Below the pieces are notes generated by a model, which saw nothing but the letters and a program-made list of their open reading frames with translations, ran no database searches and was not told where the DNA came from. Below are positions 4,542 to 18,698 of a stretch of DNA of 64,000 bases, piece by piece (the stretch's first letter is position 1; each line of letters opens with the position of its first letter). The position numbers were made by a program, and so were the translations under genes. The stretch covers positions 2,877,501 through 2,941,500 of the forward strand of contig NZ_CP053557.1 in the NCBI RefSeq assembly GCF_014524545.1, given 5' to 3'. Source of the DNA: Exiguobacterium sp. Helios. Lineage in GTDB: Bacteria > Bacillota > Bacilli > Exiguobacteriales > Exiguobacteriaceae.

Positions 4542-5699
4542 ATGCATCGCTCTCTACAAGCCCTTCAATACTATACATCGCACTCGGAAGAAGACATCCG
4601 TCGCCTTCATGAGCGGATTCGTTTAAGCCTTGCTTCGACAGAATCGTTAACGGATACGATGATTCGTTTGACCGGCCAAACACCACTTGTTCCATTTAAG
4701 CAGGATACAGTGACCGCCGAAGAATGGTCAGCTTTTTTAGCCGGCAAACATCACCATGAATTGGCGGATTTTTATGGAACACTCGTGGCTCGTCCGATTC
4801 TTGAGGAAGATGGCCCTGTCGAACCTAAAGAGGATATCGAAATTGCTCCATCCCTATCGCGGACGCACCGTGAACCAGAAGCCATCCGTCGAAACAAAGT
4901 GAAAACCCGACCAGAACAACGCATTAAAAGAAAATTCCCTTGGGGTTGGGTTGCTCTACTGATTTTATGTTTCCTTCTTGGTGCCGGTGGAACATATGTC
5001 TATTCCAATTACATCGCGAGTCCATCTTCCAGCAAACCGAAGTCAACAATCGAACAACCGGTCACTGTTGAAAAAGAAAAGGAAAAAACAAAAGAACCAA
5101 CGCCGGAGGTCAAAGAAGAATCAAATGTCCTTTACGTCAAAAGCAGAAACAGCAACATCTATAGTGACTCTGCCTTGACCGATCTACTTTTTGAAGCTGA
5201 CTTTGGTGACGGTTACCGGGTTCTTGAAACGACCGACTCTATCAGTAAGATTGAATTGACGGATGAATTGACAGGTTATATCAAAAATAACGATACGACG
5301 AAGTCTTTAAAAGGAGACGCGATTGCTGACGAATCCCTATTGACGTGGGTCAATGACAATCTCGATACAAGCTTCGTCACCGAGACGCTCATTGACCTTA
5401 TCGGCAAAAAAGCCGAAGATTTAAATAGTACTTATGGTCCACCGGAACGGACGTTTTCCGATGAAGTCAACACGTATCTGTTTTACGGAACTCATTTTTT
5501 TACCCTTCAAAATAACAAGGTCATTGCGATTGACTGGGCTGAAACAGCCATCACCAATGCTGAACTAGCGACACTCGCTCCTCTCCAACTCGAAACAGAG
5601 ACGACTGGTCTTGTGACTAGTAATTCTTATCGCCTGCAACGGTTTGAACAAACAGAAACAAGTACCAGCCGGGTGCGATTGGCTGAACAAAATCTATAA
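4542..5699 (+). CDS. Membrane-anchored protein with SH3-like extracytoplasmic region, function unknown
   Basis: No firm family was recognised. The 385-aa product has a cytoplasmic N-terminal part (~130 aa, charged, ending in a KRKFPW basic patch), one transmembrane helix at about residues 133-155, a Lys/Glu/Pro linker, then a segment resembling a bacterial SH3 domain (VLYVKSRNSNIYSDSAL, ~200-245). After it comes a GKKAEDLNSTYGPPERTF stretch, like the repeat in CAP-associated or DUF4309-type secreted domains. The start is supported by RBS AGGAGGA. It is divergent from the capsule operon and convergent with the LCP gene, so an envelope role is plausible but is inference. Confidence 0.75.
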   Translation: MHRSLQALQYYTSHSEEDIRRLHERIRLSLASTESLTDTMIRLTGQTPLVPFKQDTVTAEEWSAFLAGKHHHELADFYGTLVARPILEEDGPVEPKEDIEIAPSLSRTHREPEAIRRNKVKTRPEQRIKRKFPWGWVALLILCFLLGAGGTYVYSNYIASPSSSKPKSTIEQPVTVEKEKEKTKEPTPEVKEESNVLYVKSRNSNIYSDSALTDLLFEADFGDGYRVLETTDSISKIELTDELTGYIKNNDTTKSLKGDAIADESLLTWVNDNLDTSFVTETLIDLIGKKAEDLNSTYGPPERTFSDEVNTYLFYGTHFFTLQNNKVIAIDWAETAITNAELATLAPLQLETETTGLVTSNSYRLQRFEQTETSTSRVRLAEQNL

Positions 5700-5703
5700 C
5701 AGT

Positions 5704-5738
5704 AAAAGGGACAATCCATTTTTCGGATTGTCCCTTTT
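5704..5738. terminator. Bidirectional terminator between the unknown membrane protein and the LCP gene
   Basis: A perfect 14-bp stem (5704-5717 with 5725-5738), loop ATTTTTC, is flanked by A- and T-runs. It can serve both convergent genes. Confidence 0.9.
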
Positions 5739-5740
5739 GT

Positions 5741-6721
5741 TTACTCCAGACCAAGCGAGTAACGTAATGCGGTTTTCGTTTGGGCCAGTGAATCATCAGT
5801 CGGATGCCAGTAATAAATGCCATCCGCTTCTTTTCCACCTGTTCCTTCAAGCTTTAAATTCTTTTGATTTTTAAACGCATCCATGTAATCAAAGGCAAGT
5901 GTCCGCATCGGTTTGAATGATACATTTGTCTGAGCATTTTTACCTACGACATCCATGATCGCATTGAACTTACTGACGGAAACATCCGATGATAATTTAG
6001 CGACAACTTGTTCGATGACTTGGCGTTGACGCATTTGACGACCGAAGTCACCACGCGGATCTTCATAACGCATCCGTGTATACTTTAAGGCTTCATCACC
6101 GTTTAAGTTAATTTTTCCGACCGTGAACTGTTTATCGCCGACTTTGAAATCTAGATCGTTATTAACAGTCACTCCACCAACCGCATCAACGAGTGAGGTG
6201 AATCCTTCCATATTGATTTCTACATAGTAGTTGATTGGAATATCGAGAAACTTCTCGACGGTTTTAATCGCCATTTCCGGTCCACCAAACGAATAGGCAT
6301 GGTTGATTTTATCATTTTTCCCCTTACCGACGATCTCAACTTTCGTATCGCGTGGGATACTGATCAAACGACTTTCGTTTTGTGTCGGGTTGAGCGTCAT
6401 GATCATAATCGAGTCGCTTCGCCCGTTTGTTTCGCCTTTACGACGATCGACACCCAGCAATAAAACAGACACCGGTTTTTGTTTCTCGACGACTTCGTCA
6501 CCCGTATTTTTGATTGGCGACTGGATCTTTTTGACGGTTTGATCAACCTGATAATACGTGTAGCCGATAAACCCTCCGATTCCGACGACCAGTACTAGAG
6601 CGATTAACAGCATAACCTTTAACGGCGTCCAGCGCTTTTTGACTTTCCTTCTTTTTTTGACACGTTCCACTTTCCCACGTTCCCTTCTATTATATGTTGC
6701 TTGTTTCCTATGTAACTTCAT
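5741..6721 (-). CDS. LytR-CpsA-Psr (LCP) family cell-wall polymer ligase
   Basis: LCP enzymes move lipid-linked teichoic acid or capsule onto peptidoglycan outside the membrane. The protein has a very basic N terminus, one signal-anchor helix (~residues 33-55) and an LCP domain with the hallmark arginines: LLGVDRR, GRSDSIM, ISIPRDT and YTRMRYEDPRGDFGRQMRQ. The length, 326 aa, is normal. The ATG start has a weak RBS. A TATAAT box at 6689-6694 lies inside the first codons, so a downstream GTG start is possible. Its position beside the capsule genes suggests attachment of that polymer. Confidence 0.9.
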   Translation of the reverse strand: MKLHRKQATYNRRERGKVERVKKRRKVKKRWTPLKVMLLIALVLVVGIGGFIGYTYYQVDQTVKKIQSPIKNTGDEVVEKQKPVSVLLLGVDRRKGETNGRSDSIMIMTLNPTQNESRLISIPRDTKVEIVGKGKNDKINHAYSFGGPEMAIKTVEKFLDIPINYYVEINMEGFTSLVDAVGGVTVNNDLDFKVGDKQFTVGKINLNGDEALKYTRMRYEDPRGDFGRQMRQRQVIEQVVAKLSSDVSVSKFNAIMDVVGKNAQTNVSFKPMRTLAFDYMDAFKNQKNLKLEGTGGKEADGIYYWHPTDDSLAQTKTALRYSLGLE

Positions 6722-6811
6722 GAGTTCTCGTTATTATCGGTCAAATAAAAACGATCTTACAGTCGAGTATACTGAAAATCGACCGGGAATTGTAAAAAAC
6801 GGGAAAAGATG

Positions 6812-6843
6812 AAAAAAAGAGTCTACCGGTTGGCAGACTCTTT
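6812..6843 (-). terminator. Terminator of the subtilase/small-secreted-protein operon
   Basis: A 9-bp stem AAAGAGTCT/AGACTCTTT with a 10-nt loop is followed by a 7-nt T-run on the minus strand. Confidence 0.85.
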
Positions 6844-6851
6844 CGTCCTTA

Positions 6852-7541
6852 TTAATATGACATTTGACTTGAGACAGTGTACGTTTTCTTTTTTACATTG
6901 TATTCGAGCATGACAAATTTTTTCTGTTTTGTCGAAGTCGGGAAGACATATGTTTTAAACTCTGATTTAATCGCAAGTCCTAAATCGATCTCCTGCTTAG
7001 TTTGGACAGATGTCATATCAATTGAATCCAGTCCTGTCCATTCGCCCAATCCTTTTCCTGACAATACACCATCCAATTGTTTTTCAGTCATTCCTGTTTT
7101 AATTTTCGCGCCTTTTGCAAGTTTCATCTTACTTTCACGCGCGCCTGTCGAAGAGTCACGGAACAGATCAAGCGACTTCGATGTCAAACGATAAACCGAA
7201 CTATTTTTCTTCGTCATGAACATCAGCGTCGTAATATCAGAAGGCACGATTTCCTTTTTGTCATAAAAACTATAAATCGTCGTCTTTTGACCTTGTGTCG
7301 TGCTCGTCGCCTCTGCTTTTTGCTTGAGGACGGTCATTCCGTTCTTTTTAGTTAATTGTTTTTTATAGTCTTTTCCGTAAAGAACTTTTGCTGCCTGTTC
7401 AATCGTCATCCCATTCTTCAACGTCTTGAATTGTGTCGTTACCTTTGTTTCTTGTTTCGTTGCCGCTTCTGCTGTTCCGGCGATCAGTGTTGATCCGGCG
7501 ATTAATGCCGCGATTGTGAGTTTACCAAATGTTGTTGTCAT
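6852..7541 (-). CDS. Secreted two-repeat protein (GMT-motif, BLIP/SmpA-like), paralogue 1 of 3
   Basis: The function is unknown. It has a signal peptide ending AEA before ATKQE, giving a mature basic protein of about 203 aa. Two halves each carry a motif of the form K-x-GMT-x5-VL-x-GK: NGMTIEQAAKVLYGK (~residue 43) and TGMTEKQLDGVLSGKGLG (~148). This pattern resembles the SmpA/OmlA and beta-lactamase-inhibitory-protein (BLIP) fold, but that is inference from motif shape. It is the last gene of an operon with two paralogues and a subtilase upstream (33-nt gap) and is followed by a terminator. Confidence 0.8.
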   Translation of the reverse strand: MTTTFGKLTIAALIAGSTLIAGTAEAATKQETKVTTQFKTLKNGMTIEQAAKVLYGKDYKKQLTKKNGMTVLKQKAEATSTTQGQKTTIYSFYDKKEIVPSDITTLMFMTKKNSSVYRLTSKSLDLFRDSSTGARESKMKLAKGAKIKTGMTEKQLDGVLSGKGLGEWTGLDSIDMTSVQTKQEIDLGLAIKSEFKTYVFPTSTKQKKFVMLEYNVKKKTYTVSSQMSY

Positions 7542-7574
7542 GTGTGTTCACTCTTTTCTGTTTTAATTTAAGGT

Positions 7575-8285
7575 TTAGTCTAGTTCTTGATCACTCGAGA
7601 AGGTCTCAGCGCCACTGACGCGATAGTTTTTTTTATCTAAATCAAAGGCCATCTCAATTCGCAACCGCTCGTTCGGATGATTGGTCCGGAAAAGATAGAC
7701 TTTCCCTCGTCCTTTCCCTTGACCCAATCCCATTCTTTCCATGTCCCGCTTGGACAGCGTATGACTGAAGTCGGCTGCTGACCAGGTCATCCAGTCGCCA
7801 AGTCCCTCTCCTATCAACACTTTATCGAGTTGCTGTTCCGTCATACCATTCTTAATTTGTTTTCCTCTTTTCAGTTGTTTGTCGCTTTGCCGGACGCCCA
7901 TCGGATTTTCCCCACGGAAATCAAGTGACTTTAAAGCTAAGCGGTATACCTTTTCCTTCGGTTTGACCGTAAAGAGGAAAGTCATCAGATGCTCCGATTT
8001 TTCATCCCCGACGAGGTAGTACCTGTAATCCATCAGTGTGTCAGAATCCCGCTTCGGTGACTTTTCTTTTAAGATGACCCGGCCGTGTTTCTTCGTCAAT
8101 TGCATTTTATACGTTTTGCCGTAGCGTACTTTCGCAAACTCGGTAATCGTCATACCTGTCTTATATTTCGTAAAATCCGTCGTGACTTGTTTTTCCTGTT
8201 TGGTTGCCGCATCGACAGAGCTGATTACTAGAGTTGATGTCATGAGTGACACCAGGACAGCGTATTTCAACATTCCTTTTAACAT
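7575..8285 (-). CDS. Secreted two-repeat protein (GMT-motif), paralogue 2 of 3
   Basis: The function is unknown. It is clearly homologous to its two neighbours: signal peptide ending VDA, mature start ATKQEKQVTTDF, repeat motifs TGMTITEFAKVRYGK and NGMTEQQLDKVLIGEGLG, and a closing beta-rich segment (RIEMAFDLDKKNYRV). The product is 236 aa with a short acidic tail. The start ATG has RBS AGAAAGGAAC. It lies 17 nt after paralogue 3 and 33 nt before paralogue 1, consistent with one transcript. Confidence 0.8.
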   Translation of the reverse strand: MLKGMLKYAVLVSLMTSTLVISSVDAATKQEKQVTTDFTKYKTGMTITEFAKVRYGKTYKMQLTKKHGRVILKEKSPKRDSDTLMDYRYYLVGDEKSEHLMTFLFTVKPKEKVYRLALKSLDFRGENPMGVRQSDKQLKRGKQIKNGMTEQQLDKVLIGEGLGDWMTWSAADFSHTLSKRDMERMGLGQGKGRGKVYLFRTNHPNERLRIEMAFDLDKKNYRVSGAETFSSDQELD

Positions 8286-8302
8286 GAATGAGTGTTCCTT
8301 TC

Positions 8303-9004
8303 TTACTTCTTCTTAATCGTATGAATCGAATAGTTGTTCATCACGTAATGTTTCTTTTGATAATCAAACTTCATCATTACCTCAATCTGCTTTTTCGGAT
8401 TTGAACTTTTGAACGTATAGATTTTCATTTGACCGCGGTATTTGTATTCTTTTCGTTCCTGTTTCGTTTGGACCGATTTATAGTCCAAAGACCAACGCAT
8501 CCCTACCTGACCTAAGCCTTTACCGGACAACAGTTCATCGAGTTCCGCTTCCGTCTCATCTCCCCGGATGTAGGTTACATGTTTGAGCGTTCGGCTGCTC
8601 TCCCGTAATCCGCTATTCGTGTCCGCTGCAAACTGTAATATTTTTTGGACCAGGAAATACGTCTTCTGATTTTTTTTCGTGTGGAATTCAAACATTATCA
8701 GTCGTGGTAACGTCTTCGATTGATCATAAAATGAATACTCCCGCGACCGGTATCCTTGTTTATTCTGAGTCCAATCGGCTTTTTTCTTAAAGACCGTCGC
8801 GCCATCGGTTTGTTTCAAATGTTGTTTGTATGATGGACCGTACATGACTTTGGCGACCTGCGTCAGCGTCAAACCAAATTTAAACGACCGGTATTCTTTT
8901 AATACATTTTGTTCTTCCTTGGATGCAGCATGTCCGTCGAGTGCCCCGCTCAAGCACAGGACACCGATGATAAGGACCAGCACCAATTGTTTTAAACACT
9001 TCAT
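8303..9004 (-). CDS. Secreted two-repeat protein (GMT-motif), divergent paralogue 3 of 3
   Basis: The function is unknown. The signal peptide ends GHA before ASKEEQNVL. The first repeat motif is recognisable (FGLTLTQVAKVMYGPSYKQHL). The second has lost the GMT (GDETEAELDELLSGKGLG), so this is the most diverged copy. Like the others it ends in a basic, beta-rich segment. It starts 16 nt after the subtilase stop, which ties the three paralogues to that protease in one operon. Confidence 0.78.
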   Translation of the reverse strand: MKCLKQLVLVLIIGVLCLSGALDGHAASKEEQNVLKEYRSFKFGLTLTQVAKVMYGPSYKQHLKQTDGATVFKKKADWTQNKQGYRSREYSFYDQSKTLPRLIMFEFHTKKNQKTYFLVQKILQFAADTNSGLRESSRTLKHVTYIRGDETEAELDELLSGKGLGQVGMRWSLDYKSVQTKQERKEYKYRGQMKIYTFKSSNPKKQIEVMMKFDYQKKHYVMNNYSIHTIKKK

Positions 9005-9020
9005 GATGTTCCTACTCTCT

Positions 9021-10589
9021 TCATTTCAGTAATCGAACTGCCCGATCCGCATCGAGTCGCCCGTATCCGTACGACGGGTCGTATCCTTTTGCGCCAAGAT
9101 CCTGTGCCGACTTCTTAAGGATTGCTTCCACTTCCGACGCTTTGATCGTCGGCTTCAGACTGTAGAGGAGACTCGCAACACCGACGACGTGCGGAGCTGC
9201 CATCGAGGTCCCACTCCAAAAAGCGGACTCACCGTCACTGAGATAACTCGGGATGTCTTGTCCCGGAGCGACTAAATCCAGTCCCTTGCCATAGTTTGAG
9301 AACGACGACCGTTTATCGAACCGGTTCGTCGATCCGACCGAAAACGCATACTGGGACCGGGCCGGATACGACAATTTACTTTGTCCTTCGTTCCCGGAAG
9401 CGACAATGACGAGAACCCCTTTTTTCTTCGCATAGGCGAGGGCGTCTTCAATTGCCCGGGATGAGAACCCACCGCCGATACTGATATTGATGACTTTGGC
9501 TTTTTGTTTGACGGCATGTAAAATGCCTTTCGCGATATCCGAGTTCAACCCGTAGTTGTCTTCCCCGAGCACTTTAATCGGAATGATCGAAGCCTTTACA
9601 TTAATACCGGACATACCGTACGTATTGTTACTGTTCGCCGCAATGATACCGGCGACATGCGAGCCGTGCCCATGATCATCAATCGCGACTTGCCGGCGGT
9701 TGACGAAATCGTAACCAAGATCCATCCGGACACGTCCGGCAAAGTCCGCGTACGTCGGATTGATGCCGGTATCGATGACCGCGACGAGCACCGTCGATTG
9801 TTTCTTCCCGGCAATCCGTTTCTTCATCGCATCGAAGTTGATATCGGCGCCTTTGACGCCACCGCGTTGCCCTGTATTGTTCAGTGACCACTGATACGAT
9901 TTGAAGACATCGCCTCCGAGTCCGTGCATGGAGCTGTCGAGCTCGACGTACGCGACACCACTCGCCTTCGCGAATTGCCGTTTCGCTGCTAGTGCCTGCA
10001 TGACCGTCCGGTACGTGAACTTGACGAGACCGAGGCCGGCATCAATTGTTTCGTGCTTCACGGCTGCCGTCTTCTCCGACAGTTGTTGTTTCTGGCTGCT
10101 CGTGCCTGTTATCTTGACGACGAGACTGCTCGACTTCGCGACCGTACCTGATTGTCCAATCGATTCCCGAAGCGGCTGCAACCGCTCAAGCTTAAACGGC
10201 ACGACAAACGCTGTATTTTTCTTCCCTTCGATTTCTATGTATTGACGACCACTCCAACTGAGCGGGAAGACGAGCGACTGATCCGTGACTTGATCATATC
10301 GTCCGTAAACCAGTTGTCGTTTGTAGTCGGATTGTGATTTATAAACGGTGACGGCTTCTGTCTCGTCGGCAGCAAATTTCAGATGGGTTCCGCCTGTCAG
10401 GTAGGTTTTCGTATCGAAATAAAATAATGCTTTTCCTTTACTGTCAAACTTGCCTTTGATATAGGCTTTCTTTGTTTTCGCGTCCAGCGTCGGTAATTTT
10501 TTGGCACCGGTTCCTGCTGCTTCTATTTGAGTCGGGATCATCGTCCCGAGAAGACCTGCTACTGTTAATCCTGCAATCCATTTTTTCAT
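9021..10589 (-). CDS. Secreted subtilisin-family serine protease (S8), operon copy
   Basis: This is an extracellular endopeptidase of 522 aa. A signal peptide comes first, followed by a beta-rich N-terminal domain (~45-145, containing PLSWSGRQYIEIEG), an I9-like propeptide (~150-225), then the catalytic domain. The triad is visible: Asp in AVIDTGINP, His in HGHGSHVAGI, Ser in SGTSMAAPHV, plus the oxyanion Asn in VASGNEG. RBS GAAGGAGTGAGG precedes the ATG. It heads the operon with the three small secreted paralogues and is a close paralogue of the subtilase at 10748-12358. Confidence 0.93.
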   Translation of the reverse strand: MKKWIAGLTVAGLLGTMIPTQIEAAGTGAKKLPTLDAKTKKAYIKGKFDSKGKALFYFDTKTYLTGGTHLKFAADETEAVTVYKSQSDYKRQLVYGRYDQVTDQSLVFPLSWSGRQYIEIEGKKNTAFVVPFKLERLQPLRESIGQSGTVAKSSSLVVKITGTSSQKQQLSEKTAAVKHETIDAGLGLVKFTYRTVMQALAAKRQFAKASGVAYVELDSSMHGLGGDVFKSYQWSLNNTGQRGGVKGADINFDAMKKRIAGKKQSTVLVAVIDTGINPTYADFAGRVRMDLGYDFVNRRQVAIDDHGHGSHVAGIIAANSNNTYGMSGINVKASIIPIKVLGEDNYGLNSDIAKGILHAVKQKAKVINISIGGGFSSRAIEDALAYAKKKGVLVIVASGNEGQSKLSYPARSQYAFSVGSTNRFDKRSSFSNYGKGLDLVAPGQDIPSYLSDGESAFWSGTSMAAPHVVGVASLLYSLKPTIKASEVEAILKKSAQDLGAKGYDPSYGYGRLDADRAVRLLK

Positions 10590-10707
10590 TTCCTCACTCC
10601 TTCATCCACCTTTTGACCTATAAAACCAGTATAATGGAAAATTTTACGCTAAACACCTAATTTTTACGTTTCGAGCAGATTTTTTTCTGTTTTCAAGTCA
10701 CTTCACA

Positions 10708-10745
10708 CAAAAGGTGGATCCGGCGTCAACCGGATCCACCTTTTG
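10708..10745 (-). terminator. Hairpin terminator after the second subtilase
   Basis: A perfect 15-bp inverted repeat (10708-10722 with 10731-10745, 8-nt loop) lies directly behind the subtilase stop. The minus-strand T-run is short (TTTT within the stem), so efficiency may be moderate. Confidence 0.75.
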
Positions 10746-10747
10746 TT

Positions 10748-12358
10748 TCATTTAATGTAACTCGTCGCCCGGTCAGCATTCAGACGACCGGAACCATAGG
10801 TCGTATCATATCCTTTCGAACCGAGGTCCTTCGCTGATTTTTTGAGGATACTTTCGACGTCCGCTGACTTGATCGTCGGCTTGAAACTGTACAAGACACT
10901 GGCGACAGCCGCGACATGCGGCGCTGCCATCGAAGTTCCGCTCGCAAAGGCGAGTTCTCCATCTGCGAGATAACTCGGAATCGAGACGCCGGGTGCAACG
11001 AGATCAAGTCCCGTTCCGTAGTTCGAGAAGGACGCTTTTTTATCCGTCCGGTCGGTCGCACCGACTGACAGTACATATTTCGAACGAGCCGGATAAGACA
11101 ATGCCTTTTTTCCAGCATTGCCGGAAGCGGCGACAATCAACACGTTTTTACTTTTCGCATAAGCCAGTGCCGACTCGACCGCCTTGGAAGAGGTATCGCC
11201 ACCGAGACTGAGGTTAATGACTTTGGCACCTTTTTTCACCGCATGATTGATTCCACTGACCAAGTCCGACGTATAGCCGGCACCGTTCTCATCGAGGACC
11301 TTGATCGGAATAATCGAGGCTTTGGCATTAATCCCTGTCATCCCATACGTATTGTCACTTCCGGCTGCAATGATACCGGCGACATGCGACCCATGCCCGT
11401 AATCATCCCACGCCGTCTTCGAACGGTTGACGAAATCATAACCAAGATCCATCCGGACTTTCCCGGCGAAATCGGCATAACTCGGATTGATACCGGAATC
11501 GATGACCGCAACGAGCGTTGTCGACTGTTTTTTCTTCGCAATCCGTTTCTGCATCGCCGTCAGACCGATATCCGCTCCTTTCAACCCTTTTTTCTGACCG
11601 GTGTTCAGGAGCGACCATTGATGATGCTTGAAAGCGTCCGTTCCGAACGCTTGAATCGGCGTATCATATTCGACGTAGGCCGTCGCACTCGACTGCTCAA
11701 ACTTTTGTTTCGCTAATTTCGTTTCCGCCGCTGAACGATACGTCAATTTTTCTAAACGCAATTCCGGAGCAAAAGCTTCGACAGACTTGGCACCAAGACT
11801 GCTGCTGCGTACCATACCCGCTTTTGTCTGGATGATAAGAGCCGTTGTCGTACTCGCTTTCGTTTTAACAGAGGAACTGCTCGTCGCATCAATCGGTTCG
11901 TAACGCGAGACACTGAACGGGACGGAATATCTATCGCCCGGGTAACCTTCTAAAATCAAGTACTGCCGTCCACTCCAGCTGAGCGGGAAATACATCGTCT
12001 CGTCGTTACGCTGGAAATAACGATTGTAGACGCGTCCCGCATCAATGTCTGCCTTACTCGTAAACATCGTGCCGTAGACATCCCAATCCAGTTCAAATTC
12101 AAGATGAGTTCCGTCCTGAACAAAGTCTTTGGCGTCCATGTACCAGATAGCAAATCCGTCTTCATCAAATCGTCCTTTCATCGGTGTTCCGGCATAACTG
12201 CCATGGAATGTCGGTAACGTTTTTGCTTGATTGATTTGTTTTGCACTGACAGTTTTTTGTGTTGTACCAGCAATTTTTTGTTGCGCGACGGCTTCCCCGT
12301 TTACGCTGAGTCCCATGAACAAACTCGCGGCAAGACTTCCTGCAATGATTTTTTTCAT
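10748..12358 (-). CDS. Secreted subtilisin-family serine protease (S8), stand-alone copy
   Basis: This 536-aa secreted protease has the same architecture as the 9021-10589 protein: signal peptide, beta-rich N-terminal domain with PLSWSGRQYLILEG, propeptide, and S8 domain with AVIDSGINP (Asp), HGHGSHVAGI (His), ASGNAG (oxyanion Asn) and SGTSMAAPHV (Ser). The catalytic domains are nearly collinear, so the pair arose by tandem duplication. RBS GGGGTGAAGGA precedes the ATG. It has its own upstream gap and terminator and so is a separate transcription unit. Confidence 0.93.
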   Translation of the reverse strand: MKKIIAGSLAASLFMGLSVNGEAVAQQKIAGTTQKTVSAKQINQAKTLPTFHGSYAGTPMKGRFDEDGFAIWYMDAKDFVQDGTHLEFELDWDVYGTMFTSKADIDAGRVYNRYFQRNDETMYFPLSWSGRQYLILEGYPGDRYSVPFSVSRYEPIDATSSSSVKTKASTTTALIIQTKAGMVRSSSLGAKSVEAFAPELRLEKLTYRSAAETKLAKQKFEQSSATAYVEYDTPIQAFGTDAFKHHQWSLLNTGQKKGLKGADIGLTAMQKRIAKKKQSTTLVAVIDSGINPSYADFAGKVRMDLGYDFVNRSKTAWDDYGHGSHVAGIIAAGSDNTYGMTGINAKASIIPIKVLDENGAGYTSDLVSGINHAVKKGAKVINLSLGGDTSSKAVESALAYAKSKNVLIVAASGNAGKKALSYPARSKYVLSVGATDRTDKKASFSNYGTGLDLVAPGVSIPSYLADGELAFASGTSMAAPHVAAVASVLYSFKPTIKSADVESILKKSAKDLGSKGYDTTYGSGRLNADRATSYIK

Positions 12359-12504: not shown

Positions 12505-15186
12505 TTACTTCACGATGACTTTGAAGGTTTTAACGACCTTGTAATTTCCGACAGTCGTATAGGTAACGCGAATTGATGTTGTTCCTTTAGTGACTGCTTT
12601 AACTTGTCCTTTTGTGTTCACCGTCGCGATTTTTTTATTGAGCGACGCATAGCTGACAGATTTGATTTTATCGGTTGCTGACGCATAAATGATTGTCATT
12701 GTTTGACCTTTTTTCAATGTTTTTTGCGTAGCTTTCAGCTTCACTTCATTGACTTTCGTTTCGATCGGCAATGTAGTCGTCAGGACGAAACCGTCTTTTA
12801 ATGTCACGGTTGCCGTCACAGTCGTCTTGCCTGATGCTTTACCAACGAGACGTCCCGTTGTATCAACTGTTGCTTTTGACGTGTCCGCTACTTGATAACG
12901 AATCGATGACACAGTAGATGATGTATGTGAGACTTTTGTTTTCAGGTTGATACCTTTTCCTTGATAGACACTTGCTTTCTCGATTGTTGCTGTCGGTGCT
13001 TTTGTTGTTTGCGGAACGAAGACACCGAGGTATCCATTTACTTCTGCCGTTCTCATCCCTTTAACTGGAACGGTCAGGATTCCGTTTTTGTCTGTGACAA
13101 GTTTTGTTTGGTTTACACCACTAGCATCGACAAAGACCTGGTTCGTATGTTGTTTTCCCATATCGACTTTGATTGTCGTGTTAAGTGCTGATTTCTTCCC
13201 GATGACTGTCGCAACACCTGTGTTACGGTCTTTACCGAGTCGGACACTTGAAATCAAATGACTGCCGGCAACTTTTGAAGTGTTCGTCGTATGATACGCC
13301 ACTTTCTGTGCACCGTATGCATATTGTTTACGGACTTTCAATAAGTTTGTGATTTCATCATAGTATGGCGTTTGCTTAGACATATATGAAGTATCCGTCT
13401 GATACAAGTCACCATAGTAAACAGTCGGGACCGTATCTTTGTTCGTCAGCAAGAACGCATATTGTGAGACGACGTTATCCACTGAATACTTTTTCTTTGT
13501 GCTTGCGAGTTCTGCATTGTAGATTGCGAGTGCTTTCTTTTCTGTATCTTTATCGTACATTTTTTCAAACGATTTCGGCTCTTCGCCTGCTTTGTACTGA
13601 ATACCTGTTTTGATGCCGTACAGATCGAGCATGATCTGGTTGACGCGGTTCTTCTCTTGATCGTGGTTATTAACGAATGACCAGTTAGCTGATACATCTG
13701 TTGCACCAGTCGCTGAACGATTAACAGTTGAACCTGTCACGATGGCACTTAAGGGACGTTTTGACGCTTCATTTCCAAGGGCATTCCGCATCGTGAAGTA
13801 AAGTGGTGAGTCCATGATCAGCTGCTCATCGTTATTTGCCTTCATGTATGCTTTTTGCTCTGACTTATAGCTCTCGATGTAGCTTAAATGCTCTTTTTTA
13901 CCAAAGTGTTCTTTTGCGACTTCTGCTTCCGCTTTTAAAATCGCCGTATCGTAGTGTGACGCTGCATCGATCCGGAAGCCGTCGAACTTGTATGTTTCAA
14001 GCATCCACTTCATCCAGTTCTTTTGTTCTTTGATGACTTCTGTGTTCGAGTTGGCTAAGTCTACGCCAAGTAAGAACTCATCGTTATTCGTCATCGTCTT
14101 GTTATAGGCTTGAAGCGGGAATCCTGTTTCATCTACGAAGAGGAACTGATCTTCGATATCGATGCCCGAGTTATCGTTTTGATACGAACGTTCTTCTGTT
14201 CCGTATCCGTAAGTTGCTTGTGTCTTCATGTATTCTTCCGTCAACTTCGCAATCGTTCCATTGTCCGCTGACGCGAGGAGTGCTTCTTTTGTCTCGAAAC
14301 CATTTTCTTTCATATAAGCAAGGTAACCCGGATCCTTCGCGTATTGCGATAACATCGGTTTCCAGTTCTGCGGTGAAACTTCATACCAACCGTCAGCCGC
14401 GAGATAAGTATCGACGACATTCAAGTTTTGAGTTTTAGACGCTTCAATCAACCATTCAGGTAAATAGTTTTTCTCATTCTCCGGTCCAAAGTAACGGTAC
14501 GGTTTACCGTCTTTGTCCGTCATGACACGTCCTGTACCTTGACCTTGAAGCGATGTTCCGTTTAAGAAGGTTTTGTTCCACTCTTTGAGGTACCCGTATT
14601 TCTCTTGTCCCTGTCCGCCACCTTTTGTATAGGCGAGGTAAGGTGTCGCGAGCGTTTTTGTTGTCTGTCCGCCCGTGTATGGATTCGTGAATAACTCACC
14701 TGAGCTTGTCGCACGACGTACGAAAACAGCTTCCCGCTTGTTTAATCCAAGCATCTGGTTTGGAACCAAGTCCATTTGAACTTTGATGTTGTCATCATGC
14801 AACATGTCGACCATCATCTCGAGATGACTGGCTTTACCGTATTTCGTCGCCGTTGTCCCGCCTGGTCCTTGTGGGAATTCACCTAAGTCATACCGATCGG
14901 CAATAGCATACCCTTCCATGTAACGCGCCATATCAAACGAACGATACGCAGGCGGCATCCATACATCTGTTACTCCCCATGAGTTTAACAGGTCACCTTT
15001 TTTAGCAAGAGTCCGGTACATATTGCTGTCATATGGTTGGTAGAGGCTGAAGCTCTGGAAGATGACATGGTTATCCAATTTCTCACCTGACGTATAAGCT
15101 GCTGCTTGTTTTGGTGCTACACCGAAGCTACTTGTTGCTACGAGGGTAGCAAGCAGTCCAGCCGATACTTTTTTGGTATTCTTCAT
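12505..15186 (-). CDS. gtfC: GtfC-type (GH70) 4,6-alpha-glucanotransferase with C-terminal Ig-like domains
   Basis: This secreted alpha-transglycosylase of the GH13/GH70 clan is 893 aa from the ATG. Counting from it, the nucleophile is D407 (GFRIDAASHYD), the acid/base is E438 (LSYIESYK) and the third Asp is D509 (FVNNHDQEKN); motif I reads QMDLVPNQML. The barrel is in non-permuted (GH13-like) order, and about 160 C-terminal residues form two Big2 Ig-like domains. I recognise this combination from the Exiguobacterium sibiricum GtfC enzyme, which turns starch alpha-1,4 chains into products with alpha-1,6 linkages. A plain alpha-amylase is the alternative. TTG at 15189 is a possible start, but the ATG has RBS AAAGGGGA. 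Confidence 0.85.
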   Translation of the reverse strand: MKNTKKVSAGLLATLVATSSFGVAPKQAAAYTSGEKLDNHVIFQSFSLYQPYDSNMYRTLAKKGDLLNSWGVTDVWMPPAYRSFDMARYMEGYAIADRYDLGEFPQGPGGTTATKYGKASHLEMMVDMLHDDNIKVQMDLVPNQMLGLNKREAVFVRRATSSGELFTNPYTGGQTTKTLATPYLAYTKGGGQGQEKYGYLKEWNKTFLNGTSLQGQGTGRVMTDKDGKPYRYFGPENEKNYLPEWLIEASKTQNLNVVDTYLAADGWYEVSPQNWKPMLSQYAKDPGYLAYMKENGFETKEALLASADNGTIAKLTEEYMKTQATYGYGTEERSYQNDNSGIDIEDQFLFVDETGFPLQAYNKTMTNNDEFLLGVDLANSNTEVIKEQKNWMKWMLETYKFDGFRIDAASHYDTAILKAEAEVAKEHFGKKEHLSYIESYKSEQKAYMKANNDEQLIMDSPLYFTMRNALGNEASKRPLSAIVTGSTVNRSATGATDVSANWSFVNNHDQEKNRVNQIMLDLYGIKTGIQYKAGEEPKSFEKMYDKDTEKKALAIYNAELASTKKKYSVDNVVSQYAFLLTNKDTVPTVYYGDLYQTDTSYMSKQTPYYDEITNLLKVRKQYAYGAQKVAYHTTNTSKVAGSHLISSVRLGKDRNTGVATVIGKKSALNTTIKVDMGKQHTNQVFVDASGVNQTKLVTDKNGILTVPVKGMRTAEVNGYLGVFVPQTTKAPTATIEKASVYQGKGINLKTKVSHTSSTVSSIRYQVADTSKATVDTTGRLVGKASGKTTVTATVTLKDGFVLTTTLPIETKVNEVKLKATQKTLKKGQTMTIIYASATDKIKSVSYASLNKKIATVNTKGQVKAVTKGTTSIRVTYTTVGNYKVVKTFKVIVK

Positions 15187-15324
15187 CAATATAAGTCCCC
15201 TTTATTATCTGTATTTAATTGATTATTTTTTCCTTTAATTACTAAACAACATCACATAATTTAACATCTTTCTTTCAAGATAACACCTTCTATTTTTCAA
15301 AAAAAGTCAATAGATTTAACAAAA

Positions 15325-15398: not shown

Positions 15399-18300
15399 TT
15401 AGTTTAATCCGAGAAGAACTGCTTTCTCGTAACCGCCAGTCAAGACTGAGTTGTCGTATGACTGAAGATCTTTGTTGACGACAATGACGTTCGACAACGT
15501 TTTGAGTGTACCAGCCGGGACTTTGATTTTAACGATATCAAGTCCGTTCGATACGATGTCATCTGAGTCAGCAAGCGAGATACTTGTTCCGACCGGAAGT
15601 GATTTTCCGTTCAGGATGTAGTTCGCTGTGCTTGTCGCATCGTACATACCAGAGTATTGAACGCCCTCTGTGAACTTGATGCGGATGACGTCTTTCTCGT
15701 TTTTCTCGTTCGCTGATACTTTAACGATTTCGAACGGTGTCAAGACTGGTTTAACAGGCGTTTTCATGAGTTTGAAGTCATGTGTCGCTGTTGCAACCGT
15801 GTTACCGACATCATCAGACAATGATTTGACGACGACTTTCCAGTCTTCGCCGTACCCTTCCATGTCGACGAGTTTTTGCAGGCTCTCGTTTGCTTTGACT
15901 TGGAAGTTTTTGTCCGTTGTATCCGTGTACTTGACGACAGATCCGTCGATTGTAACGATTTTTCCATCTTTGTTCTTACCGATGAATTCAACTGTCGTTT
16001 TCGGAGGCAAGACGATACCGTCCGCATTGATCAGTGGCGTGTTGTACTCATCGAGGTCACGGATTTTCACCGGCTCGCTCATCATGACAACGAAGTCGTT
16101 TGTCATTGGTACGCGGTCGATCGTGTTGATTTCAGCACTCTTCAGGTCCGGCGTGTTGAGCGGCGATCCTTCATAGCTGAGGTCAAGGATTAACGCGTCG
16201 TTCTTCTCACCGTTCGCTTCGGCCTGGATGGCACCTTTTTCGAGCGTGATGCGGAACTTATCGTTGTAGTAGTTTTCTTTCGTGTTGACTGTATCGTAGA
16301 TTTCCGTCCAGTCTTTCATCAACTCGATGACAGCTTCGCCCGTCTCTTTGTTGTAAGACGTGACATTGACATACTTGCTGAAGTCTTCGTATTTCTTCGT
16401 GTTCGAGTTGTAACGCTCAAACTTCAGTTCGTTATCAAGCAATGCAAGGATATTCGAATTTTTGAGGCCTTTGCTGAACATCACGCGGAATTGTTCAGGT
16501 GATTCAACGACAACGCCAGCTGTCGGTTTGACTGTATCTGCCGCAACTGTGAAGTCGAGGTTTTGTGTCGTTCCGATGTTGCTTTCATCTGAAAGTGCTG
16601 CGAAGTCCATTGTATCCCAGACTTGAAGTGAGTGTTTGCCTGCTGCGAAGTAGCCTTCTTTGACGCCCGGATAATCATCATTCAACATGATGCGGACTGT
16701 ATCGCGACGGTCGACACCTGTTTTGTTATCAAATCCGTAATGGATGACTTTGAAGTACTTCTCTCCGTATTGTCCGTCGATTTTGAATTTCGCAGAATCA
16801 ACCGCTTCAGAGAATTTCACTTCGAGTTGGTTCAGACCGACTGCTTTAACAGACGTTACTTCAGCCGGACGGGCATCCGTCAATTTGAAGCTTGCTTTTG
16901 ATTTCACTTCTGTATCCGTGCTGCTCGTGATTTTCGCTGTCAATTTGACGACTGCGTTGTCCTGGAGTGGTGTTTCTTTGTCCAAGATCAATTCGAACGC
17001 TTTTGGATTCGAAGGAATCGCTTTGACACCGATAACACGTTTCATGCCATCGAATTGTTCGATTTGGATGTTGTCGTTTGCCAAGTAATCTTCTTCGTGA
17101 AGACCTGGGTAGACTTTATCGAGTCCAAACGATTTGAGTAAGAGTTCACGTGAAACAGCTTTATCAAGGAAGACCGTGACACGATCTGCCTGATTCGATT
17201 CAGCTGCCAGGACGTTGATCATCTCGATCGGTGCTGGCGTGACAGCGATTGTGCTGAATTTGACTTTCGTCTCTCCAGAAATCTTACCGATGAGGTTTTT
17301 GTAGTCGCCTGCTGCTGTTTCGATGATTTCTGCACGGATCATAGCTTCGAGATCTGTGTTGCTGAACTCTGAAGTGAGGATGACCGTTGCTTTTCCGTCC
17401 TGGATTGTCACGCGGTCTTTCGCCAGGGCACCGAATGATGTTGATAATTTCAAGACGATATCGTCTGCATTTTTATCGACTTCACCAGTTGCTTTGTCTT
17501 TGAGTAAGAACGTGACTTCTGTGTTGTCGGCACCGTTTGCGACGATTGTCGACGCTTTTGGTGAGACTTCAAGCATCCAGAGGTTTTCAACGCCTTGTGT
17601 CATGAAACTCATTGAACCGAGGTCACGAGCGACGCCGCCGATCATGATGCCTTTCGCTTCCACTGTGTAGTCTTTATCGTACTCAAGACCTGACACGTCA
17701 AGGAGTGCTGATTTTTTATCCGGGCTGAGGGTAACAGCTGTCACTGTTCCGCCTGCGATTTTGAAGTTTTCGACTGAAGCGCTATCAACCGCGCGTGAGA
17801 ACGAGACTTCCACTTTTTTGTTGCCGATTGCTTTTGCTGACGTCAACATCGTGTTCGCTACCGTGAAGTCCATTGCTGCTGATTTCACATCGCCGATTTT
17901 CACGACATAGCTGTGTGTACCTTCAGGAATTCCGCCTTTCGAAGCCATGAATTTCCCTTTTGAAAGCGTCCCTTTGACGACGATTGGTGCTTTGGACATA
18001 TCTTTACCTGGGTAAATTAAGAGTTCTGTCATTGCGCCTGCCGCTGCGTACATGACGTCTGCTTTAACAGAAAGTGTCTGATCATCGACGCTTCCCATGA
18101 CGTTCATGATATTCGCTGCTTTGACTTCATAGTTGATTGAACCTGTCACGACAGAGTTCGCACCTTTGTATGAGTAAGCAAGCTTATACTTGCCTGCTTT
18201 TGATGTGTTTGGTGTTTTCAGGTTGAATTTGCTGATCGGGCGTTTAACGATGATACCTGATTTGTAACGGATGCTGATTGTGCTTGGAAGAACAACTTTT

Positions 18301-18698
18301 CCTCCGACTGCAACTGGTTCGAGGACTGGTTCGAGGACATCAACCGGATAGTTCTGAAGTTCTACTTTGAGGATTGCTTTTTTCGAAGTACCAGAAACTG
18401 TTCCATACAAGACTTGGAACTTGTTAATGTACTTTTTCTCGAACTTCACGGTACCGTTCCACTTCACTGAACGCATTTCGTACTTGCCGTTTGTGAGCTT
18501 GACTTTGACTTTCGTCGGTAACATCAATTTCTTAACAGCGTACTTATCACCGCCTGCATGTTTCATCAAGATCGGTTCGATGTATTTGACAGAGACCTTC
18601 GAAGCCGCGTCAGCAGCAACCGGTGCGACGACAGATGCAGTGACTGCGAGTGCAGTTGCAGCAGCGTACAATTTGTTTGATTTTTTCGTGTAAGCCAT
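15399..18698 (-). CDS. Large secreted S-layer-like surface protein
   Basis: This 1099-aa protein has a signal peptide (cleavage after AADA, ~residue 32). Serial beta-sandwich modules follow, with repeated openings such as AKAIGNKKVEVSFSRAVDS, VKAVGLNQLEVKFSEAVDS and MVVMMSEPVKI, which match SbsC/Big-type Ig-like domains of Bacillales surface-layer proteins. The N-terminal ~190 residues hold two Ig-like units and may bind the wall. No SLH domain and no sortase motif was seen. RBS AGGAGGA, a leader of about 500 bp, strong codon bias and a terminator fit an abundant surface protein. The S-layer call is inference from architecture. Confidence 0.8.
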   Translation of the reverse strand: MAYTKKSNKLYAAATALAVTASVVAPVAADAASKVSVKYIEPILMKHAGGDKYAVKKLMLPTKVKVKLTNGKYEMRSVKWNGTVKFEKKYINKFQVLYGTVSGTSKKAILKVELQNYPVDVLEPVLEPVAVGGKVVLPSTISIRYKSGIIVKRPISKFNLKTPNTSKAGKYKLAYSYKGANSVVTGSINYEVKAANIMNVMGSVDDQTLSVKADVMYAAAGAMTELLIYPGKDMSKAPIVVKGTLSKGKFMASKGGIPEGTHSYVVKIGDVKSAAMDFTVANTMLTSAKAIGNKKVEVSFSRAVDSASVENFKIAGGTVTAVTLSPDKKSALLDVSGLEYDKDYTVEAKGIMIGGVARDLGSMSFMTQGVENLWMLEVSPKASTIVANGADNTEVTFLLKDKATGEVDKNADDIVLKLSTSFGALAKDRVTIQDGKATVILTSEFSNTDLEAMIRAEIIETAAGDYKNLIGKISGETKVKFSTIAVTPAPIEMINVLAAESNQADRVTVFLDKAVSRELLLKSFGLDKVYPGLHEEDYLANDNIQIEQFDGMKRVIGVKAIPSNPKAFELILDKETPLQDNAVVKLTAKITSSTDTEVKSKASFKLTDARPAEVTSVKAVGLNQLEVKFSEAVDSAKFKIDGQYGEKYFKVIHYGFDNKTGVDRRDTVRIMLNDDYPGVKEGYFAAGKHSLQVWDTMDFAALSDESNIGTTQNLDFTVAADTVKPTAGVVVESPEQFRVMFSKGLKNSNILALLDNELKFERYNSNTKKYEDFSKYVNVTSYNKETGEAVIELMKDWTEIYDTVNTKENYYNDKFRITLEKGAIQAEANGEKNDALILDLSYEGSPLNTPDLKSAEINTIDRVPMTNDFVVMMSEPVKIRDLDEYNTPLINADGIVLPPKTTVEFIGKNKDGKIVTIDGSVVKYTDTTDKNFQVKANESLQKLVDMEGYGEDWKVVVKSLSDDVGNTVATATHDFKLMKTPVKPVLTPFEIVKVSANEKNEKDVIRIKFTEGVQYSGMYDATSTANYILNGKSLPVGTSISLADSDDIVSNGLDIVKIKVPAGTLKTLSNVIVVNKDLQSYDNSVLTGGYEKAVLLGLN

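What the first reader, a model, noticed from the sequence alone, without database searches (positions are those of the whole stretch)
6852..10589. Operon linking a secreted subtilase to three tandem BLIP/SmpA-like secreted paralogues
Four genes run head-to-tail with gaps of only 16, 17 and 33 nt and one terminator: a full S8 protease, then three small basic secreted proteins that are paralogues of each other, each with two GMT-type half-repeats. The motif pattern resembles the BLIP/SmpA fold, which in known cases binds enzymes. A protease co-expressed with three diverged binding proteins suggests inhibitors, chaperones or targeting partners of the subtilases. I know of no described system of this form. 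The fold and function are inference; the operon and paralogy are seen.
Basis: partly seen in the sequence, partly recalled or inferred. Interest (0 to 1): 0.75.

Follow-up and report, generated by a model that had tools for sequence, protein, structure and literature searches.

The report
Protease operon with swappable secreted binders
In Exiguobacterium a secreted-protease gene is followed by one to six copies of a small exported protein that looks folded like a known enzyme inhibitor; near-identical proteases can sit beside very different, swapped small proteins, so these probably bind something other than that protease.

Summary
The operon is real: an S8 subtilase (SubA) and three exported paralogues, FamP, FamM and FamD, on the minus strand with gaps of 16, 17 and 33 nt and one terminator-like hairpin. 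In 14 of 14 genomes with a SubA orthologue fam lies directly behind it, 1-6 copies; no fam was found outside the genus. New here: fam genes were replaced as whole genes or single repeats. G007 and G014 share SubA at 98.9% but FamD at 56.3%; G009 and G007 share FamD fully but FamP at 60.5%. Differences between types concentrate in one alternating strand register, perhaps the face BLIP binds with; within a type this register is conserved (omega 0.12), so no running arms race is seen. FamM, however, tracks SubA. Best reading: secreted BLIP-type binders with fixed, distinct specificities, mostly not aimed at SubA. Partners and binding are inferred.

The parts
9021..10589 (-). subA: S8 subtilase with export signal, 522 aa (N-terminal beta-rich region, I9-like propeptide about 155-217, catalytic domain about 262-520; Asp273, His308, Asn400, Ser462)
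   Evidence: Pfam PF00082 2.6e-56; the four residues invariant in 12 aligned sequences; b-a-b-b-a-b in the model; phmmer match 167-514 to 3whi, a 365-aa chain named Subtilisin E whose length points to the pro-form
8303..9004 (-). famP: protease-proximal exported tandem BLIP-fold protein, 233 aa
   Evidence: allele replacement
7575..8285 (-). famM: middle exported tandem BLIP-fold protein, 236 aa
   Evidence: half-gene mosaic against G004
6852..7541 (-). famD: distal exported tandem BLIP-fold protein, 229 aa
   Evidence: model; structural matches; two allele types
7161..7457 (-). famD repeat 1 (residues 29-127): helices, then beta strands
   Evidence: model secondary structure; repeat alignment
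6855..7145 (-). famD repeat 2 (residues 133-229)
   Evidence: model secondary structure; repeat alignment
6815..6844 (-). intrinsic-terminator-like hairpin with T run after famD
   Evidence: 13 pairs, 4-nt loop
10748..12358 (-). subB: upstream subtilase paralogue (55% identical to SubA), separated from subA by a hairpin at 10707-10746 that the scan lists for the plus strand; neighbour, not counted in the operon

Best explanation
An operon makes an active-looking secreted subtilase together with a recombining tandem set of exported two-repeat proteins of the BLIP-like fold. Shown: operon layout, paralogy, fold match of a model, conserved linkage, copy number 1-6, replacement of single genes and single repeats between species, and concentration of inter-type differences in one register of the beta strands. 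Inferred: the variable register is the open (concave) sheet face with which BLIP holds its target; each paralogue or allele type is therefore a secreted binder with its own fixed specificity; recombination reshuffles these specificities; the main partners of FamP and FamD are extracellular proteins other than SubA (foreign exoenzymes, or surface proteins that differ between strains), with the protease co-expressed under the same conditions. Most likely the binding blocks or masks the partner, as BLIP does.
For: Fold: FamD model pLDDT 87.3, pTM 0.81; VIA-align rows 1-15 are all BLIP, BLIP-I or BLP, Z 8.4-7.0, 141-148 residues, rmsd 3.9-4.6, model 33-229 (one row 32-229), next row Z 6.1. Linkage: 14 of 14 genomes with a SubA orthologue. 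Swaps: G007-G014 subA dS 0.10, famP 0.07, famM 0.20, but famD saturated, dN 0.44 (SubA 98.9%, FamD 56.3% identical); G009-G007 subA dS 0.30, famM 0.21, famD 0.06, but famP saturated (FamD 100%, FamP 60.5%); G000-G004 famM repeat 1 dS 1.05 against repeat 2 dS 0.05; DNA identity steps agree. FamD type II joins G018 of one species clade with G007, G009, G010, G012 of the other (support 96/97). Register: alternation of rates within strands, 47 of 5000 shuffles reach it; register chosen on 30 rows of clade B and the E. indicum-type genomes and tested on clade A: variable sites 25/34, 25/34, 29/34 in it against 74/168, 67/168, 90/168 elsewhere (Fisher 1.4e-3, 3e-4, 3.5e-4). SubA omega 0.05-0.08 in six clade-A genomes.
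Against: No partner is known and no complex could be modelled. In 18 non-redundant recent orthologue pairs the variable register has omega 0.12, like the rest (0.09 and 0.10): no sign of current positive selection. FamM distances follow SubA distances (rho 0.93, 2 of 720 permutations), as a SubA partner's would. LCP, downstream of famD, fails to follow SubA too (rho 0.07) and has dS 0.74 between G007 and G014, so some famD swaps may be parts of longer exchanges from the exopolysaccharide side. That the variable register is the concave face is not shown: I had no coordinates, and assigning faces by hydrophobicity gave inconsistent strands. Foldseek gave no match below E 0.038; the BLIP sequence model finds none of these proteins. 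The constant place of the array behind subA is explained here only by co-expression.
Confidence: 0.45

Rival explanations
1. Cognate regulators: the fam proteins are secreted inhibitors or modulators of SubA and SubB that hold the protease in check near the cell; several copies give graded or broader control.
For: Fixed position directly behind subA in 14 of 14 genomes; of 19 genomes 14 have a SubA orthologue and fam and 2 have neither (G008, G015); BLIP is an inhibitor fold (PMC2954215, passages, proposes inhibitory function for the superfamily); FamM distances follow SubA (rho 0.93).
Against: SubAs of G007 and G014 are 98.9% identical while their FamDs are 56.3% identical; SubA seems to carry its own propeptide; 3 of 19 genomes (G005, G013, G016) have fam without a SubA orthologue, G008 has a 50% identical subtilase and no fam, and unlinked fam copies exist.
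Confidence: 0.22
2. Neutral shuffling: the locus lies beside an exopolysaccharide locus that recombines, and fam diversity is carried along without selection on binding.
For: LCP distances also fail to follow SubA (rho 0.07); no omega excess at the variable register in recent pairs.
Against: LCP differs by at most 7.5% while FamD reaches 44.5% in the same six genomes; between G009 and G007 famP alone is replaced while both flanks match, which a border effect does not give; differences sit mainly in one strand register.
Confidence: 0.15
3. Substrate pair: SubA processes or releases the fam proteins, which then act (for instance as surface or antagonistic proteins).
For: Protease and fam proteins are encoded together with export signals.
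Against: The modelled mature protein is folded from residue 29 on, leaving little room for a propeptide. A conserved cleavage site was not looked for.
Confidence: 0.08
4. Dedicated chaperone or foldase of the subtilase.
For: Conserved adjacency.
Against: SubA seems to have its own propeptide; FamP and FamD differ widely beside near-identical SubAs; G005, G013, G016 and G008 keep a subtilase without fam beside it.
Confidence: 0.05
5. True beta-lactamase inhibitors.
For: Best structural matches are BLIP, BLIP-I and BLP.
Against: 11-14% identity in those matches; below Pfam's BLIP cut-off; BLP, of the same fold, has no detectable beta-lactamase inhibition (PMC6121496, passages). I did not search the genome for beta-lactamases.
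Confidence: 0.03

Closest known systems
BLIP, BLIP-I and BLP of Streptomyces (PF07467)
   Same: Secreted, tandem alpha-beta repeat (PMC8363833, abstract and passages), whole-length structural match
   Different: 11-14% identity; Pfam cut-off not reached; not in a protease operon or recombining array as far as I recall; inhibition of beta-lactamases untested here
BamE/SmpA_OmlA (PF04355)
   Same: GMT-type helix motif; 4 of 18 fam members hit it, best 22.3 bits against a cut-off of 23.2
   Different: BamE is a single-domain outer-membrane lipoprotein (recalled); fam proteins have two repeats and no cysteine beyond residue 35 in 50 of 50 sequences
BLIP/DUF3862-type proteins of other Bacilli
   Same: GMT repeats; of the three over the BLIP cut-off the fam profile hits one with 25.3 bits and one with 15.1, and not the third
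   Different: No S8 gene on the stretch fetched in 12 of 12 loci from the BLIP search
DUF2874 / PepSY / BLIP superfamily described with BVU2987 (PMC2954215, passages)
   Same: Tandem repeats of one BLIP-like domain, exported, inhibitory function proposed
   Different: No protease operon of this layout in the passages seen
Protease plus inhibitor operons such as staphylococcal sspABC (staphostatin)
   Same: Protease and small co-encoded protein in one operon (search listing only; details recalled)
   Different: Different protease class and inhibitor fold, one inhibitor gene rather than an exchanged array (recalled)

Membership tests
BLIP-like superfamily (fold level) | Tandem alpha-beta repeat with helices packed on a beta sheet | tested here: met
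   AlphaFold2 pLDDT 87.3; 15 best VIA-align rows BLIP/BLIP-I/BLP, Z 8.4-7.0 over 33-229, 3 of them at 8 or more; halves align, P 1e-4. Caveat: Foldseek alone not significant
BLIP family PF07467 | Score above Pfam's curated cut-off (26.7 bits) | tested here: not met
   2 of 18 members hit at all, best E 0.022, 15.8 bits; no match at E 0.01 in any of 19 Exiguobacterium genomes
BLIP family PF07467 | Inhibits class A beta-lactamases | not testable with these tools
   Needs an assay
BamE family PF04355 | Score above Pfam's curated cut-off (23.2 bits) | tested here: not met
   4 of 18 members hit, best 22.3 bits, E 1.1e-4
Peptidase S8 (SubA) | Subtilase domain with Asp, His, Ser and oxyanion Asn | tested here: met
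   PF00082 2.6e-56; D273, H308, N400, S462 invariant in 12 rows; their roles assigned by motif, recalled
Peptidase S8 (SubA) | I9-type propeptide acting as internal chaperone and inhibitor | tested here: inconclusive
   b-a-b-b-a-b at 155-217 with block pLDDT 79-92 in a model of mean 65; phmmer match from residue 167 to a 365-aa Subtilisin E chain; no Pfam I9 hit at E<=5
Protease-inhibitor operon | Co-encoded protein binds and inhibits the protease | not testable with these tools
   Two chains could not be co-folded; indirect evidence is mixed

The most novel reading that the evidence does not exclude
A bacterial repertoire of secreted binding proteins: the two-repeat BLIP fold serves as a constant scaffold whose open sheet face differs between copies, and strains exchange whole copies or single repeats to change the set of extracellular targets they can capture, all driven from the operon of an exoprotease.
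Probability: 0.25. Interest if true: 0.8.

Novelty: new variant of a known kind. Interest (0 to 1): 0.52.

Why it matters
If right, BLIP-like proteins are not only isolated inhibitors but can form exchangeable sets with separate specificities, natural material for the question how one sheet surface is re-aimed at new protein targets. The natural pairs (SubA 98.9% identical, FamD 56.3%) make the choice between 'inhibitor of its own protease' and 'binder of something else' directly testable.

Tried and rejected
Fam proteins in phages or plasmids: tblastn of FamD found none in 50,697 phage and 72,556 plasmid records; a viral-contig scan gave 10 pattern stretches and no relative. PHROGs: nothing for FamD and FamP at E 1, only E 0.07 or worse for FamM. 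NCBIfam: nothing for the three. PDB by sequence: best E 0.031, ribosomal protein S8, taken as chance. Foldseek alone: best E 0.038, no BLIP among the 50 rows shown of 791; the BLIP match appears only after realignment by VIA-align, whose note warns that Z under 8 may be a common arrangement; 3 rows reach 8.

Face assignment by hydrophobicity gave opposite registers in neighbouring strands and was dropped; I then used alternation of rates (register chosen and described on the same rows) and a split in which the register was chosen on one set and tested on another. 49 distinct of 50 fam rows were used; the clade-A tests had 6, 6 and 7 rows. Unlinked copies as control: groups of 7 and 5 showed no enrichment (10/31, p 0.22; 3/33, p 0.86), but they are 76-97% and 88-97% identical among themselves, so the control is weak; short or broken pieces (L088, L093, L095), ungrouped copies (L085, L086), the window genome's own copy (L006) and outside proteins (L116, L117, L119) were not in it. 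Positive selection in recent pairs: 46 pairs with dS 0.03-0.9, reduced to 18 non-redundant; not found. The fam tree carries a long-branch warning and the FamD type I group is less well supported (88/81, 91/95 with the lone copies) than type II (96/97).

Literature: searches (Exiguobacterium with protease or secretome terms; BLIP, SmpA, BamE, PepSY with protease or fold terms; protease-inhibitor operons) listed no paper on this operon; only the listed part of each result was seen, and only open-licence PMC papers are held. PMC8407118 (genus genomics): nine passages for six terms; they count S08 peptidases and do not mention such an operon. PMC10653890, PMC2954215, PMC8363833 and PMC6121496: passages only.
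Full report
What is there. On the minus strand subA (9021-10589), famP (8303-9004), famM (7575-8285) and famD (6852-7541) follow each other with gaps of 16, 17 and 33 nt; the only minus-strand terminator-like site in 5500-12000 lies after famD, at 6844-6815. A 17-pair hairpin (10707-10746, listed for the plus strand) lies between subA and the upstream paralogue subB. FamM and FamP are 38% and 37% identical to FamD. None of the three hits any Pfam model at E 5 or NCBIfam model at E 1. The names famP, famM, famD (proximal, middle, distal) are mine. That the genome is an Exiguobacterium follows from the named relatives.

The protease. SubA is a Peptidase_S8 (2.6e-56) with Asp273, His308, Asn400 and Ser462 invariant in 12 aligned SubA/SubB sequences. 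Its model is poor overall (mean pLDDT 65), but residues 155-217 form beta-alpha-beta-beta-alpha-beta with block pLDDT of 79-92, and phmmer aligns 167-514 with 3whi, a 365-aa Subtilisin E chain. I read this as an I9-like propeptide; Pfam's I9 model was not hit. So SubA probably has its own internal chaperone and inhibitor.

The fold of the fam proteins. From 18 family sequences AlphaFold2 gives FamD with pLDDT 87.3 and pTM 0.81: two rounds of helices and beta strands. The two halves align with each other (P 1e-4). Realignment of Foldseek's 1000 best chains puts BLIP, BLIP-I and BLP in the first 15 rows (Z 8.4-7.0, 141-148 residues, 11-14% identity, model 33-229); the next row, a different family, has Z 6.1. 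Foldseek's own E-values were not significant. Sequence adds little: BamE in 4 of 18 members (one at E 1.1e-4, just under the cut-off), BLIP in 2 of 18 at 0.022 and 0.058 amid chance-level hits to other families; the BLIP model finds nothing in 19 Exiguobacterium genomes at E 0.01; the fam profile hits a two-repeat BLIP/DUF3862/BamE protein of another genome of the class with 25.3 bits. I take the BLIP-like fold as well supported, and membership of the Pfam families BLIP and BamE as not met.

Distribution and linkage. Fam was found in 17 of 19 Exiguobacterium genomes, the window's own included, and in 0 of 42 other genomes; in a class-wide search 17 of 398 genomes matched, all of this genus; a scan of genome contigs gave 8 loci, all Exiguobacterium. 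In 14 of 14 genomes with a SubA orthologue (66% or more identical to the window's; 62-99% among themselves) the fam array lies directly behind it, on the side of an LCP gene of an exopolysaccharide locus; intact copies number 1 to 5, and G002 has a sixth, broken one. Three genomes (G005, G013, G016) have one fam gene beside an Ig-domain protein gene and integrase genes, with a 51-52% identical subtilase some 24-36 kb away; G008 has a 50% identical subtilase and no fam; G015 has neither. A divergent fam copy, broken in G002, G009 and G011, lies elsewhere in all 17 genomes with fam; on the 18 stretches fetched around these (8.7-15 kb) no S8 gene was found.

Exchange of alleles. Between G007 and G014 synonymous divergence is 0.10 in subA, 0.07 in famP and 0.20 in famM, but famD is saturated (dN 0.44); SubA is 98.9% and FamD 56.3% identical. 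LCP, beyond famD, has dS 0.74 there, so that swap may reach further. Between G009 and G007 dS is 0.30, 0.21 and 0.06 in subA, famM and famD, but famP is saturated (60.5% identical): one gene replaced between matching flanks. Between G000 (the window) and G004 subA has 0.22, famD 0.16, famP 1.98, and famM 1.05 in its first repeat against 0.05 in its second. DNA identity along the operon steps accordingly. FamD falls into two types; type II unites G018 with G007, G009, G010 and G012 although G018 belongs to the other species clade (support 96/97; type I less well supported). In six genomes FamD and FamP distances do not follow SubA clearly (rho 0.04 and 0.47), LCP does not either (0.07), SubB does (0.72) and FamM does strongly (0.93; 2 of 720 permutations). 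So exchange is plain for famD and famP; famM tracks SubA at gene level and is mosaic within the gene.

Where the differences lie. Site rates alternate along the strands more than in shuffles (47 of 5000 reach the value). When the faster register was chosen on 30 rows of clade B and the E. indicum-type genomes and tested on clade A, 25/34, 25/34 and 29/34 of its sites varied in FamP, FamM and FamD, against 74/168, 67/168 and 90/168 elsewhere. FamD types I and II (3 and 4 rows) differ by 90 fixed sites of 229, none in residues 1-27. The conserved register is rich in Phe, Tyr and Leu, so I infer that it packs on the helices and that the variable one lies on the open face, in BLIP the concave binding surface (PMC8363833, passages). 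This is inference without coordinates. Against a running arms race: in 18 recent pairs the variable register has omega 0.12, no more than the rest (0.09, 0.10). The unlinked copies show no such enrichment, but that control is weak. The picture is of distinct, then frozen, specificities.

How it most likely works. A strain secretes SubA and, from the same message, one to several BLIP-type proteins, each with its own sheet surface and so its own partner. As near-identical SubAs stand beside FamDs that are 56% identical, SubA is an unlikely main partner of FamD and, by the same logic, FamP; FamM may be one. Foreign exoenzymes or strain-variable surface proteins fit better. Co-transcription, binding, blocking and partner identity are inferred.

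Known or new. The fold and the protease are known kinds. A protease operon with an exchanged array of BLIP-fold proteins was not found in the searches named under Tried and rejected. I rate it a new variant of a known kind.

Noticed in passing
window 12505-15189 (-): Large exported enzyme labelled 'amylase' in my scripts: Pfam Glyco_hydro_70 (7.4e-60), alpha-amylase (5.6e-11) and a C-terminal Ig-like Big_2 domain; GH70 enzymes of Exiguobacterium are known as far as I recall.
   Followed up: partly
window 15399-18698 (-): 1099-aa exported protein with a Big_4 Ig-like match (labelled 'SLHlike' in my scripts; no SLH domain was found). Its identity to relatives does not follow the species order (partly on fragments), and a distant relative lies beside the lone fam gene of G005, G013 and G016.
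   Followed up: partly
L055 10110-11692 (G009) and L056 10735-12359 (G010): subB is split into two ORFs in these two genomes while subA and the fam genes are open; decay and sequencing error not told apart.
   Followed up: no
L048 4061-6174 (G002), L049 10273-10961 (G003): Broken fam copies; in G002 transposase-like ORFs lie between array and LCP, in G007 one lies there too, and in G010 one lies beyond subB (labels from reading the sequence, not from a search).
   Followed up: no
L050 5784-7437: Two convergent phage-integrase-family genes next to the lone fam gene of G005 (Pfam), with similar ORFs in G013 and G016: a possible mobile setting.
   Followed up: partly
window 4542-5699 (+): Protein with one likely membrane segment and only sub-threshold Pfam hits, on the opposite strand between the LCP gene and the capsule genes, one of the faster-changing neighbours (59-94% identity).
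   Followed up: no
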